Shown piece by piece: positions 811 through 44,890 of a stretch of DNA of 64,000 bases. This stretch comes from Axinella damicornis (taxonomy: Eukaryota > Porifera > Demospongiae > Axinellida > Axinellidae). The DNA is taken from the NCBI GenBank assembly GCA_963931865.1, contig OZ007513.1, positions 2,311,988 to 2,375,987 of the forward strand, in the 5' to 3' direction. The translations under genes were made by a program, and so were the position numbers. The notes beneath the pieces were generated by a model, which was not told where the DNA came from, did not search any database, and was given only the letters and a program-made list of their open reading frames with translations. Numbering within the stretch: the stretch's first letter is position 1; each line of letters starts with the position of its first letter.

Positions 811-2445
811 GTGGCAGGACAGGAAGACAATAATGGCTGCTCCCTATCAGATGAAATGTGTCAAGAACTAGGTAGGGTCTTCGTTCCGCTTTCCTGCGAG
901 TGTGTGTGCCCAGACTGCCAAGCAAGGGAGGTACGAAACGAAACCACATGTGAGTGTCAGTGCCCCACTGATGATGTAATGCGCACATGCATAGCGCCGC
1001 AAGTATTCAACGCAACAATCTGTGATTGTGAATGTCCCAGTGAAACAGTCAACACATGCTCGGAACCATTCGAATTCAGTGGTACCCGCTGTGAATGTGT
1101 ATGTCCCCAAATTGAGGACCAATGTAGTTCGGGCCCACAAACTGAGCTCAACGAGATGACGTGTGATTGTCAGTGCCCAACACCAAGGGAGGAATGCACG
1201 CCACCACAAGAATTCAATGACAATTCTTGCCAGTGTGAGTGTCCAGTAGTGCCCCCGACCTGTGACAATCCACTCTTTGAGTTCAATATGCAAACCTGCA
1301 CGTGCACATGCCGAACGGTAGATGACTGCGTTGGTGGAAACCAATTCAATTCGAACACTTGTCAGTGTGCATGTCCACTAACGCAAGATGATTGCACAGA
1401 TGCGCAATTCCTAAATGAAACTGAATGCAGGTGTCAGTGCAGTGAAACACCAATATGCCCTCCAGGCACGTTCTTCAATGAAAGTGTATGTGAATGTCGC
1501 TGTCTGTCAATTCTCCAGTGTATCAGCCCATTGGAATTTGACGACAGACTCGATTCCTGCAATTGTTCTTGTCCTCAAGTGCAAACTTGCAACGGAGCAC
1601 AGGAGATCAATCCACTGACATGTGAATGCGACTGTGCAGTGACATGTACCGGAATGCAAATGCAAGATCTGTCAACGTGTGCGTGCAACTGCCCTGATGC
1701 CCTTATGTGCTCTGAAAACCAAGTCGAAGATACAGAGAATTGTAACTGTGTTTGTCCGAATGACGAGAGTGATTGCAATGAGTTTGAGATCTTCAATACT
1801 ACTTCTTGCATGTGTGAGTGTTCAATTCCACCAGACGAACCTTGTGTATGCGATGATGACGATGAAGATACGACAAACAGGACTCGCAGTGGAAGTCGAT
1901 CAGAATCTTCCCCTAGAAGCACTTCCTCTAGAAGCACCTCCCCTAGAAGCACATCCCCTAGAAGTACTACTGCCCGTGAAAGGGATGACCCTGATGATAA
2001 TGATGACACTACGCATACAGGCTCATCACGATCAACCTCTAGATCTGGGCACAGCCACTCAAGTCCAAGATCTGGTAGAAGTGCCAGCCACAGCACGACA
2101 GGTTCTAGGAGTACCACTCATACAACACGTACTGGTTCTAGATATGACGGAGAATGTGTTTGTGATGACAGCGATACTAGTAGAAGCCGCTCGACTGGTC
2201 GTCGTTCAACACATCGCCACAGTCGACCAACACCTCGCCACAGCCGATCAACAGGAACAGGCAGGAGTACCACGGGAAGGAGTACCGGAACTGGAAGGAG
2301 TACCGGCACGGGAAGGAGCAACACAACTGGAAGGAGTACCGGCACTGGAAGATCAGGCTCAAACAGCACGGCCATTGAAGATCCGAATGCATTGTGTTCC
2401 GCTGGTGGTACGTTCGACAGGGAACTTTGTATGTGCGTCCAGTGA
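811..2445 (+). CDS. Secreted CXCXC-repeat protein with Ser/Arg/Thr-rich tail (5' exon missing)
   Basis: This is the last, large exon of a gene whose signal-peptide exon lies outside the window or was not recognised. It starts after a clear acceptor (tactatacag, AG at 809-810) in phase 0, like its paralogues, and encodes 544 residues. Residues 1-350 hold about 15 CXCXC units, pattern C-x(10-13)-C-x-C-x-C-P, many with the core Q-x-F-N-x-T-C. Several N-x-S/T glycosylation sites sit in that core (NETT, NATI, NESV, NTTS). An acidic patch (CDDDDEDTT) follows, then about 170 residues of Ser/Arg/Thr-rich repeats (SPRST, GRSTGT) interrupted by one Cys pair, then a closing half-repeat (CSAGGTFDRELCMC). 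CXCXC repeats occur in secreted silk-like and growth-factor-tail proteins, so an extracellular structural role is inferred. The actual function is unknown. Confidence 0.8.
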   Translation: MAGQEDNNGCSLSDEMCQELGRVFVPLSCECVCPDCQAREVRNETTCECQCPTDDVMRTCIAPQVFNATICDCECPSETVNTCSEPFEFSGTRCECVCPQIEDQCSSGPQTELNEMTCDCQCPTPREECTPPQEFNDNSCQCECPVVPPTCDNPLFEFNMQTCTCTCRTVDDCVGGNQFNSNTCQCACPLTQDDCTDAQFLNETECRCQCSETPICPPGTFFNESVCECRCLSILQCISPLEFDDRLDSCNCSCPQVQTCNGAQEINPLTCECDCAVTCTGMQMQDLSTCACNCPDALMCSENQVEDTENCNCVCPNDESDCNEFEIFNTTSCMCECSIPPDEPCVCDDDDEDTTNRTRSGSRSESSPRSTSSRSTSPRSTSPRSTTARERDDPDDNDDTTHTGSSRSTSRSGHSHSSPRSGRSASHSTTGSRSTTHTTRTGSRYDGECVCDDSDTSRSRSTGRRSTHRHSRPTPRHSRSTGTGRSTTGRSTGTGRSTGTGRSNTTGRSTGTGRSGSNSTAIEDPNALCSAGGTFDRELCMCVQ

Positions 2446-4037
2446 TATTCGGCTGAACAAACAATTATTACCGACATTAGGCCACAATAATGATATATTA
2501 TGAAGTTGATTGTGTGTGGCGTGATGAACTACTTGTATCAAGACCTTTACTCTGCAATGGTTGCTTCAACTATAAAGCTTACCATGAATACCTGCTACAA
2601 AGTTTTATGATATAGCATTACATGCACATGGCCACAAAGAGAGATTGCAGTAAACAGTTGTGCTGGTGGAATCCATTTTTGTACTTGTTGCTAGGGTTAC
2701 CAGTACCAACTGTACCACATGCTTTTATACGCACAACTTGCTTGTATTAATTTTTTCTCAAGATACAATTATTATCCCAGCATGTCTGTCCACATAATTA
2801 TAATTGTGCACATGTGTAGCTAGCTACCTGCTATGCTGCTGTGCCGATTAGCACTCCTCGTTGGCTGTAAGCACATACACACATCTACATTGTCACTATA
2901 TAAATCGTAAGTATAGCTCATGATGTGGTGTATGAGTTTGGGTGCAGTGGGTGTGAGTCCTAGATGCACAGCATTGTGAGGCCAACAAGTCTAGACATGT
3001 CTGCATTTTGGGGGCTGTTGTTGTGGTTATGACCCTATTTGGCAATTGATGAAAGGCGATCAACACAGCTGGGATGGTCAGCTGCTATAGAACTATTCAT
3101 CAATTAAGCCAGCACCTTATGTTAATATGTGTACCCTATTAGCTAATCATGCATAGTGGTCACAATGGACATGTTTGCCACTAAATAATGACCTTTTGTC
3201 AATCTTGCTGTAGACCCAATATTCACTTCACTGCCAGAAGCGTACCCTCCACACGTACACACACACACACGGTAACCAATGGATACAAGAAGTATGTGCC
3301 ATTTCCGTAGCAACATAAATGACATCTTGCAGGAAAGCCCAGGTCAAACTGTTAGCTAACACCTACTCATACAATAATTAGACTGTTTACTCTAGCCCTG
3401 GGAATGGTGTCATGAGTCAGTTACTGTTCGCATTCATGGCTCCAGTGGAGAGCACAAATTCAGTTAACTTGCTCTTAGTAACACAAGGCCACAACATCAA
3501 AGTGCTACTACCCACTCTTAATGCCCATGGCAGTAACATCCGTGTACACAGTACTTTAGTCCCATTATGACTTGGCAAACACATCTCATAATCAACTTTA
3601 GGAACCCAATGACGTATGTGTACCGCGTATTGATACCAAGGAAGCGTGGGTGTATGTGCATGGATTCACAGGCAAATCCAACCACTACTGACATTAGCAC
3701 CCACGTTTACAAGAGAAGAAATATGGGTGTAGCCGCTTCATGCTTGTTCCAGTTGGCAGTCTGCTCTGGGATGACATCAAAATCACATAAGATCAATGGG
3801 AGGGCGTCCTGTGAAAACCTCATTGTGCACATGCACAGATAACTAATCTATTTAATGTAGCAATATTGCTAGTTGTTTGAATAGTAGCTACTATAACTGT
3901 GTATGTAGGTAGTGAAGAAGAAAGCCTGTTTCTATAGCTAGTTACTGCTTTCTTGGAATTTTGTGGTCAGGATGAATGGCTATTGTCTGCTCAGAAGCTA
4001 TACATCATAACAAGCAACCAAGCTTGGAAGATTACTG
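2446..4037. other. Intergenic stretch, no gene seen
   Basis: About 1.6 kb between two CXCXC genes. Open frames here are short and lack Cys periodicity, splice logic or family resemblance. Only a short (AC)n run near 3255-3270 stands out. Confidence 0.6.
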
Positions 4038-44200: not shown

Positions 44201-44890
44201 CAAGGCAGACCCACGCCAGCAGGCATGGTGCCTGGACTGGTCAAGGTATGTGCACACCTGCATCATCTCCAACCATGCAGGTTAAGGTTACGGGATACTC
44301 GTGCCGTGCGAAATGTATTGGGAAATGTATACTTAAGCTCGCTAACCAAGAATCTCAGGTACGAAGAGCGTGAGCAACTTGATTCTGGCGGTGGAGGTGC
44401 GCTGTCACAAGGTGCAGGGCATGACGGAAGCTTTTACCGATACGCTGTCACTTCATCTTTTAAAACCATGCAGGTTAAGATGAAGTGACAATGTAGAAAA
44501 TGGTACGTAGCTTTGATCCCCAAAGTTTGAGAGCTCTAGAGAAGCAAAGAGCAAGTAGTCACGGCCTCAAACCCAAACCAACCCCAGCATGGATAGGAGC
44601 CATCCGCACTGGGGTTGGTTTGGGTCTGGGGCCGAGATTAGCGACCAAGCTTCTTCCTGAACTGTGACACCAGCTTTAATACAGCCTTCAGGTTGCATGA
44701 AAACAAACTTCACATTTAGATTACTGGAGATACGTATTATTAGAGATTACTAGAGTGTACTAGAGATTACAGAGTGCATAACACAGAAACAGACAGCTTG
44801 GAAATCAATATCTGATTTTGTGTTCTCAGGTACGGCCATGGCCAATGCACCGGCGGAACCAACTCAGAGTTCTGCAAGTGGGTCTGCTAA
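38245..44890 (+). CDS. Giant secreted CXCXC-rod protein, about 63 repeats, with a C-terminal cap exon
   Basis: Exon 1 is 38245-38298 (MSGVKIAGFLVVLLAAVL, signal peptide), donor gtaagt. Exon 2 is 38594-42759, phase 0. Exon 3 is 44830-44890. Exon 2 appears to end in a stop, but that TAA lies inside a strong donor (TGCAC then gtaagt). Splicing to exon 3 (acceptor gtgttctcag) keeps the frame and adds YGHGQCTGGTNSEFCKWVC, giving 1426 residues. I count about 63 CXCXC units with the alternating linkers PTPRPK and KVI/RVL/RLL. One block of seven units (about 453 bp) is duplicated almost exactly at 39391 and 39844. The last ten or so units are more diverged, and the final 45 residues form a separate Cys-rich cap. 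There is no Arg-rich tail. The 2070-bp last intron holds poly-G and foldback sequence. A polyadenylation signal follows at 45078. An extracellular disulfide-rich fibre protein is inferred. Confidence 0.9.
42881..42911. repeat. Poly-G run in the last intron
   Basis: About 31 G followed by a short GA-rich stretch, inside the intron of the 38245-44890 gene. Confidence 0.9.
44037..44155. repeat. (CACCCACT)n-like simple repeat
   Basis: Imperfect 4- and 8-bp periodic sequence of CACC, CACT and CCCA words within the last intron of the giant CXCXC gene. Confidence 0.8.
44562..44640. mobile_element. Foldback element with cctcaaacccaaaccaacccc ends
   Basis: ggcctcaaacccaaacca and tggtttgggtctggggcc form two arms around a centre of about 20 bp, in the last intron of the giant CXCXC gene. 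One arm of the same family is at positions 1-30. Confidence 0.65.

What the first reader, a model, noticed from the sequence alone, without database searches (positions are those of the whole stretch)
811..44890. A 44-kb tandem cluster of secreted CXCXC-repeat genes
Eight genes and at least six broken copies, all on one strand, share a signal-peptide exon, a phase-0 intron and a mature-protein exon made of CXCXC repeats. CXCXC repeats are known from Balbiani ring 3 silk protein and the VEGF-C tail. A dedicated multigene locus of rods and basic-tailed variants looks like a kit of extracellular building parts (fibre, cement, cuticle or mineral matrix). I do not know of a described family with this layout.
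Basis: partly seen in the sequence, partly recalled or inferred. Interest (0 to 1): 0.88.

Follow-up and report, generated by a model that had tools for sequence, protein, structure and literature searches.

The report
Sponge cluster of cysteine-rod matrix genes
A sponge genome carries a row of eight related genes for proteins made largely of small cysteine-rich modules, several with long charged tails, which are predicted to be secreted and would likely cross-link into the tough organic matrix of the sponge skeleton.

Summary
The window has eight genes on one strand, each with an open mature-protein exon of C-x-C-x-C modules, a predicted signal exon and a phase-0 intron (g1's signal exon lies just upstream of the window), and six broken pieces. 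A ninth open exon (g0) lies upstream; paralogues occur at three more loci (C3, C7, C12). COX1 places the genome in Demospongiae; silicatein-type exons are present. Two classes occur. Rods are cysteine modules only (g7 net +92, g9 +109). Tailed proteins (g0, g1, g2, g3, g4, g6, g8) add a net-positive low-complexity tail and a C-terminal half-module cap; the rods of g1 and g2 are acidic (-51, -40). g3, g4 and g6 carry furin-type sites around an acidic 34-residue peptide. AlphaFold2 predicts one beta-hairpin per module (pLDDT 88) and a disordered tail. g7/g9 show purifying selection (Ka/Ks 0.25). The module is the known BR3P/CXCXC repeat (Pfam PF03128), already noted in sponges; I did not find this gene kit described. 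Most likely it is a cystine-cross-linked, charge-paired skeletal matrix (spicule sheath, or a keratin-like part of spongin). That function is inferred: no transcripts or proteomics were available.

The parts
811..2445 (+). g1 mature exon: acidic rod (15 CXCXC, net -51 over residues 1-347), R/S/T tail, cap CSAGGTFDRELCMCVQ; its predicted signal exon lies upstream of the window at -1439..-1380
   Evidence: Pfam CXCXC 17.5 bits
4117..4158 (+). g2 predicted signal exon MLCHVILLGAAIFG
4706..6358 (+). g2 mature exon: acidic rod (19 CXCXC, net -40 over residues 1-425), SRTRA tail, cap CPQFQEFNPHTCSCEFTA
   Evidence: Pfam
8054..8116 (+). g3 predicted signal exon
8415..9716 (+). g3 mature exon: Cys module, Pro-rich hinge, three [14 protein letters not shown] tail with one RGKR..RDKR acidic 34-mer, cap
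   Evidence: CXCXC 17.4 bits at 9051
10299..10448 (+). broken piece: copy of the g2 3' end
   Evidence: 96% identity
14146..14208 (+). g4 predicted signal exon
14456..15751 (+). g4 mature exon: six CXCXC, Pro hinge, basic tail with one acidic 34-mer, cap
   Evidence: AF2 model
16723..17120 (+). broken g4-like copy (frame shifts and stops)
17766..17865 (+). broken g4-like N-terminal piece
19611..20027 (+). g5: broken g7-like copy, TAG after 25 codons, runs into a minisatellite
21332..21394 (+). g6 predicted signal exon
22480..24762 (+). g6 mature exon: as g4 but with four RGKR..RDKR acidic 34-mers alternating with basic Gly/Arg/Ser stretches
25675..25970 (+). broken g4-like copy
26905..27006 (+). 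broken g4-like N-terminal piece
27663..27722 (+). g7 predicted signal exon
28202..30583 (+). g7 mature exon: basic rod, 36 CXCXC, 793 aa, net +92, 18.4% Cys
   Evidence: Pfam E 1.1e-75
31977..32021 (+). g8 predicted signal exon
32299..32877 (+). g8 mature exon: few Cys modules, Ser/Asp/Arg-rich tail (SDSKRSASDSSSDSSS), cap CPSGQRLNRRTCRCF plus a short extension
   Evidence: CXCXC 26.4 bits at 32422
38245..38298 (+). g9 predicted signal exon
38594..42763 (+). g9 mature exon: basic rod, 61 CXCXC, 1389 aa, net +109, 18.4% Cys
   Evidence: Pfam E 4.7e-104; six-module AF2 model

Best explanation
This is a tandem cluster of eight genes (nine with g0 upstream) in a demosponge genome, and its proteins, predicted to be secreted, likely assemble into a cystine-cross-linked, charge-paired extracellular matrix of the skeleton, such as the spicule sheath or a keratin-like part of the spongin cement. 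Shown by sequence: open exons of C-x-C-x-C-x(5-6)-C-x(10) modules; basic rods (g7, g9) beside acidic rods with tails (g1, g2); tailed members whose low-complexity chain is held between cysteine modules and a cysteine cap. Predicted: each module is a beta-hairpin, so a rod is a string of hairpins; tails are disordered; a proprotein convertase would cut at RGKR and RDKR in g3, g4 and g6, freeing an acidic 34-mer from flanking basic chains. Inferred: acidic and basic parts are kept apart or neutralised in the secretory path, condense together outside the cell, bind acidic surfaces (silica, sulphated glycans) through the Arg/Lys/Ser-rich tails, and set by disulphide exchange between rods and caps.
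For: Gene architecture shared by the eight window genes. Module consensus and charges. Ka/Ks 0.25 over 790 aligned codons of g7/g9. 5678 open codons in nine exons against 959 stops in the five other frames. AF2 on six g9 modules: six hairpins, mean pLDDT 87.8, pTM 0.50; g4 tail residues 229-415 under pLDDT 50. Cap in 9 of 9 tailed proteins examined, two of them from C3; all nine tails net positive. C3 paralogues have (SK)n and Ser/Asp-rich tails. Demosponge COX1; Cys-to-Ser silicatein-type active-site exons. Spongin is described as sulphur-rich and keratin-like (PMC11906918, PMC5867632, passages).
Against: No transcript, proteome or localisation. Tail repeats are partly recent minisatellites: in g2 and g6 mismatches show no third-position excess. 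Replacement changes outnumber silent ones in the g4/g6 N part (14.5 against 2.5; ratio 1.66). Main texts of one skeletal proteome (Vaceletia, a coralline sponge) and one spongin proteome do not contain the word Balbiani; the latter names collagens I and III as main components (abstract). One passage of PMC5867632 quotes only 'a trace of cystine' in bath-sponge spongin in 1926, and that literature is on keratose sponges. Window tails are Arg-rich, not Lys-rich (K 0-5%). Disulphide pairing is unknown. Furin sites are pattern matches; single R-x-[KR]-R matches also occur in g0, g2 and g9.
Confidence: 0.45

Rival explanations
1. Secreted antimicrobial or barrier peptides: the Arg/Gly/Ser-rich chains would be released as cationic peptides, with the acidic 34-mers as neutralising pro-pieces, and the cysteine modules as carriers.
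For: Furin-type sites bracketing acidic 34-mers in 3 of 9 proteins; g6 alternates four acidic and basic stretches; recent tandem duplication of the block; more replacement than silent changes in the g4/g6 N part.
Against: g7 and g9, the largest members, have no such chain; g0, g1, g2, g8 lack the paired sites; cap and modules tie the tail at both ends, which suits a material better.
Confidence: 0.15
2. Glycan-binding matrix and signalling scaffold: basic CXCXC rods bind heparan-like or sulphated sponge glycans, as the VEGF-A heparin-binding domain does, and organise growth factors or cell adhesion rather than the skeleton.
Against: All those scores are weak; acidic rods g1 and g2 would not be expected to bind sulphated glycans; 61 modules in one chain is far beyond the three to five BR3P motifs reported for cnidarian VEGFs (passage).
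Confidence: 0.2
3. Direct silicifying matrix: tails precipitate and template silica inside or on spicules, as silaffins and silacidins do in diatoms.
For: Same genome has silicatein-type exons; C3 paralogues carry (SK)n and Ser/Asp runs; a polycation plus an acidic peptide released by processing resembles silaffin plus silacidin (PMC4557024, passages).
Against: No sequence relation to silaffins was seen; processing motif differs (furin-type, not RXL); no link to spicules shown; silicatein is usually held to suffice in demosponges (recalled).
Confidence: 0.15
4. Mostly neutral repeat expansion: a minisatellite-prone locus with decaying copies and no single conserved role.
For: Six broken pieces, near-identical repeat DNA in the g6 tail, block duplicated at high identity.
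Against: Ka/Ks 0.25 for g7/g9, splice-site pattern kept in all eight, no stops in 5678 codons.
Confidence: 0.05

Closest known systems
Balbiani ring 3 protein (BR3P, Chironomus salivary silk; Pfam PF03128 CXCXC)
   Same: C-x10-C-x-C-x-C module in long arrays, Cys-rich, predicted secreted (motif as given in PMC10328876)
   Different: Protein searches found only 24-40% local identity over repeats; named ones are molluscan VWA-plus-CXCXC proteins and cephalopod 'balbiani ring protein 3-like'. Charge classes, basic tails, caps and a tandem cluster are not features of BR3 that I know of (recalled).
VEGF-C/VEGF-D silk homology domain and VEGF-A heparin-binding domain
   Same: BR3P repeat; weak structural and sequence match of the module
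   Different: No PDGF/VEGF domain match in the seven window proteins scanned; PF00341 gave 2 matches in the genome, both below cut-off and outside the window
BR3P-like proteins of Porifera noted in PMC10328876
   Same: Sponge proteins with this repeat; five of 11 sponge hits were called genuine BR3P or BR3P-like (passage)
   Different: Mentioned there as false positives of a VEGF search; their sequences (supplement) were not seen; no gene cluster, tails or function in the passages read
Diatom silaffins and silacidins
   Same: Signal peptide, repeated polycationic chain, acidic peptides released by processing, Ser-rich (PMC4557024, passages)
   Different: No sequence relation seen; Arg rather than Lys in the window; furin-type rather than RXL sites; cysteine modules at both ends; sponge, not diatom
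Hexactinellid perisilin and glassin
   Same: Secreted; perisilin has a Cys-rich part plus a low-complexity tail, is multigene and silica-associated (PMC10772126, sections 6 and 8)
   Different: Perisilin is a CAP-type (GLIPR1-like) protein with a His-rich tail; no CAP domain in the seven window proteins scanned

Membership tests
Pfam PF03128 CXCXC repeat proteins | Match to the CXCXC profile over the 15-bit cut-off | tested here: met
   8 of 8 window genes: g1, g2, g4, g6, g7, g9 (7 scanned, g3 silent at E 0.05, g8 not scanned); g3 and g8 by position
Balbiani ring 3 protein | C-x10-C-x-C-x-C repeat array | tested here: met
   C-x10-C-x-C counted 57 times in g9 and 35 in g7; module pattern
Balbiani ring 3 protein | Orthology to BR3 beyond the repeat | tested here: inconclusive
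   Searches (10 hits at E 1e-10; 15 hits at E 1e-8) show repeat-level similarity only, 24-40% identity; insect BR3 not among them
Balbiani ring 3 protein | Expression in a silk-secreting gland | not testable with these tools
   no expression data
PDGF/VEGF (VEGF-C type) | PDGF/VEGF cystine-knot domain | tested here: not met
   Pfam scan of 7 of 8 window proteins gave only CXCXC or nothing; PF00341 in the whole genome gave 2 matches below cut-off, neither in the window
Silaffin/silacidin | Lys-rich, polyamine-modifiable K clusters | tested here: not met
   K 0-5% in window tails; C3 paralogues have (SK)n
Silaffin/silacidin | Occluded in biosilica and precipitating silica | not testable with these tools
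   needs proteomics and assay
Perisilin | CAP/GLIPR1-like domain | tested here: not met
   (7 of 8 window proteins); definition from PMC10772126 section 8
Spongin short-chain collagen | Short collagenous domain plus NC1 domain | tested here: not met
   no collagen or NC1 match (7 of 8 window proteins); definition from a passage of PMC11906918
Cystine-rich skeletal scleroprotein (works like) | Presence in insoluble skeleton, released by reduction | not testable with these tools
   no proteomics available

The most novel reading that the evidence does not exclude
The cluster encodes the long-sought keratin-like, sulphur-rich component of the sponge skeleton: disulphide-setting CXCXC rods of opposite charge that form coacervates with furin-released polycations and acidic peptides, gluing spicules and spongin and guiding silica at their surface. 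It would be an animal counterpart of silaffin-silacidin chemistry built on the same module that later served VEGF-C.
Probability: 0.18. Interest if true: 0.87.

Novelty: new variant of a known kind. Interest (0 to 1): 0.63.

Why it matters
Spongin has been studied for more than 300 years, yet a 2018 review (PMC5867632, passages) still calls its sequences unknown and asks what its sulphur does. This gene set gives testable candidates: proteins with up to 18% cysteine and large opposite charges in a sponge with silicatein-type genes. It also shows the BR3P module used as a stand-alone building block in a sponge, which bears on where the VEGF-C tail came from, and offers a natural design of end-anchored polyelectrolytes.
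Full report
What is there. The window is G000:C9:2311988-2375987 of a 226-Mb genome in 120 contigs. The + strand holds long open frames rich in C-x-C-x-C. With TG/CA runs removed there are 167 such motifs on the + strand and 19 on the - strand, against 1-9 in each of 10 first-order Markov sequences. Eight mature exons are open from a 3' splice site to a stop: g1, g2, g3, g4, g6, g7, g8, g9. In front of each lies an ATG exon of 14-21 codons with a hydrophobic core, ending at a codon boundary before GT; seven lie in the window and that of g1 lies at -1439. 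The predicted introns are 247-2190 bases. In most genes the residues across the junction (VASD, TADA, GAQA, VAEA, ATAQ) look like signal-peptidase sites; that is judgement by eye, as no signal-peptide program was at hand.

Extent. A ninth open exon, g0, lies upstream at -7809..-6052, without a signal exon found. Apart from it, the 60 kb upstream and 20 kb downstream show only scattered single motifs or TG-run translations. Six broken pieces lie among the genes. A block of g4, two broken pieces and broken g5 is repeated as g6, two broken pieces and g7: separate blastn stretches were 84-95% identical, and five pieces realigned with gaps not counted were 94-97%. So the locus grows by recent tandem duplication.

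Anatomy of the proteins. The module is C-x-C-x-C-x(5-6)-C-x(10), with consensus close to CQCECPTPRPKCTxPQVFNxxT in the 22-residue modules of g7 and g9. g7 (793 aa, 36 motifs) and g9 (1389 aa, 61 motifs) are 18.4% cysteine and basic, net +92 and +109; the cysteine parts of g1 and g2 are acidic, net -51 and -40. g0, g1, g2, g3, g4, g6 and g8 add a low-complexity, net-positive chain and end with a half-module cap, C[PS]x[GF]...CxC; with the two C3 paralogues that is 9 of 9 tailed proteins examined. Tail chemistry differs: RTGTR, RGTR, GGSR, SRTRA, TGTGRS, SDSSSDSSS. g3, g4 and g6 have RGKR and RDKR around a 34-residue acidic peptide, once, once and four times; single R-x-[KR]-R matches occur also in g0, g2 and g9.

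Are they genes? g7 and g9 differ with Ka 0.156 and Ks 0.633, ratio 0.25, over 790 aligned codons. Within g7 and g9, module pairs differ far more at synonymous sites (0.61 and 0.72 against 0.23 and 0.31). The middle block of g3/g4/g6 gives ratios 0.18-0.27 on only 2-3 silent and 2 replacement changes each. Against: the N part of g4/g6 has 14.5 replacement and 2.5 silent changes. g1 and g2 are too far apart for the test. Tails are partly young repeats: g6 and g2 tails show no third-position excess and g3's does not either, while g0 and g4 show changes mostly at third positions.

Whose genome. The mitochondrial contig C120 (41,168 bases) carries cox1 in pieces. COX1 is 93-94% identical to unnamed proteins and 91% to a named Demospongiae cluster represented by Xestospongia muta; the next named cluster is a zoanthid at 85%. 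The Peptidase_C1 family gave 64 matches. I translated 28 of the 30 loci returned; 11 showed a readable active-site stretch in the direction printed, of which five have Ser in place of the catalytic Cys (for example GQCGASYAFSAMGALEGA), five Cys, one Ala; minus-strand loci were not re-read. Ser at this place is the silicatein hallmark (recalled). So this is very likely a silica-forming demosponge; the species is unknown.

Rest of the family. The CXCXC profile at E 10 gave 126 matches (150 of 155 candidates scored); outside the cluster those in open frames over 200 codons fall at C7:10.299-10.315 Mb, C3:1.565-1.568 Mb and C12:7.368-7.371 Mb. A search with g9 gave 17 matches (34 of 52 candidates scored), all on C9, C3 or C7. 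C3 holds two tailed genes with signal exon, phase-0 intron and cap; their tails carry SKSKSKSK, SSSDSTDSSDSSS and SGTSGSRRSG. C7 has four and C12 two shorter open exons in which another cysteine domain precedes the modules; signal exons were found for two of these six.

Outside relatives. One single-protein and one profile search of about 5.8 billion proteins gave 10 hits (E 1e-10) and 15 hits (E 1e-8), 24-40% identical over the repeats: molluscs including cephalopod 'balbiani ring protein 3-like', an unnamed eukaryote, and bacteria including a Thermomicrobiales genome. No closer relative was listed; the word-based search may miss some. PMC10328876 (passages) reports 11 sponge hits in a VEGF search, all false, five of them BR3P or BR3P-like; so the repeat was known in sponges.

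How it likely works. A secreted chain of disulphide-braced hairpins would be a rod. Two rods are strongly basic, and two members with acidic rods are encoded beside them; tailed members hold a polyelectrolyte between two cysteine anchors. I infer that these proteins condense by charge and set by disulphides, like other extracellular cements, and that the Arg/Lys/Ser-rich tails stick to acidic surfaces such as silica or sulphated glycans. Convertase cutting in g3, g4 and g6 is predicted by motif only; it would free the acidic peptide that shields the basic chains. Spongin is reported to reach 5% sulphur and to be keratin-like (PMC11906918, passage), and its sequences were called unknown in 2018 (PMC5867632, passages). 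Against that, the 2025 paper names collagens I and III as main components (abstract), the 2018 review also quotes a 1926 analysis with only a trace of cystine, and both concern keratose sponges, not this one. This cluster is a candidate for a sulphur-rich part of a sponge skeleton. Nothing here shows expression or place.

Verdict. A real, coherent multigene kit, not found described in my searches, built on a known repeat: new variant of a known kind.

Noticed in passing
L075, L071, L058, L076 (C7:10.298-10.316 Mb, -) and L073 (C12:7.367-7.3715 Mb, +): Six open exons (signal exons found for two of them) encode an N-terminal cysteine domain (C7: C-x22-C-x3-C-x5-C ... CxC; C12 ending DHISCRCKEC) followed by CXCXC modules, the layout of VEGF-C/D. 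PMC10328876 (passages) found no PDGF/VEGF in sponges. Pfam PDGF was not hit (below cut-off elsewhere), so this is a lead only.
   Followed up: partly
L072 and L074 (C3:1.5635-1.5705 Mb, -): Two tailed paralogues with (SK)n, Ser/Asp-rich and SGTSGSRRSG tails and the same cap; silaffin-like and phosphophoryn-like in look (recalled comparison).
   Followed up: partly
G000:C2:12.05-12.18 Mb and C4:5.26-5.31 Mb: Two groups of Peptidase_C1 exons, some with the silicatein-type Ser in place of Cys: apparent silicatein clusters.
   Followed up: partly
G000:C120 (41,168 bases), L009, L011, L012: Large mitochondrial contig with cox1 split by introns that carry a reverse-transcriptase-like ORF and a LAGLIDADG-like ORF (by eye), and repetitive intergenic DNA.
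   Followed up: no
window 50843-51154, +: Histone H4 open frame without intron (by eye).
   Followed up: no
window 13172-13674 and 20042-20625: A minisatellite of about 24 bases occurs at two places; the second runs on from broken gene g5.
   Followed up: no
P0010, P0132, P0133: Bacterial proteins (P0010 from a Thermomicrobiales genome; the other two judged bacterial by their twin-arginine-like leaders) carry long CXCXC arrays, so the module also occurs in bacteria.
   Followed up: no
about 5.2 kb upstream of the window, L001: CCHC zinc-knuckle-like fragment (CYRCGGKHSASTC..CFVCGEKGHLARMC), probably from a retroelement.
   Followed up: no
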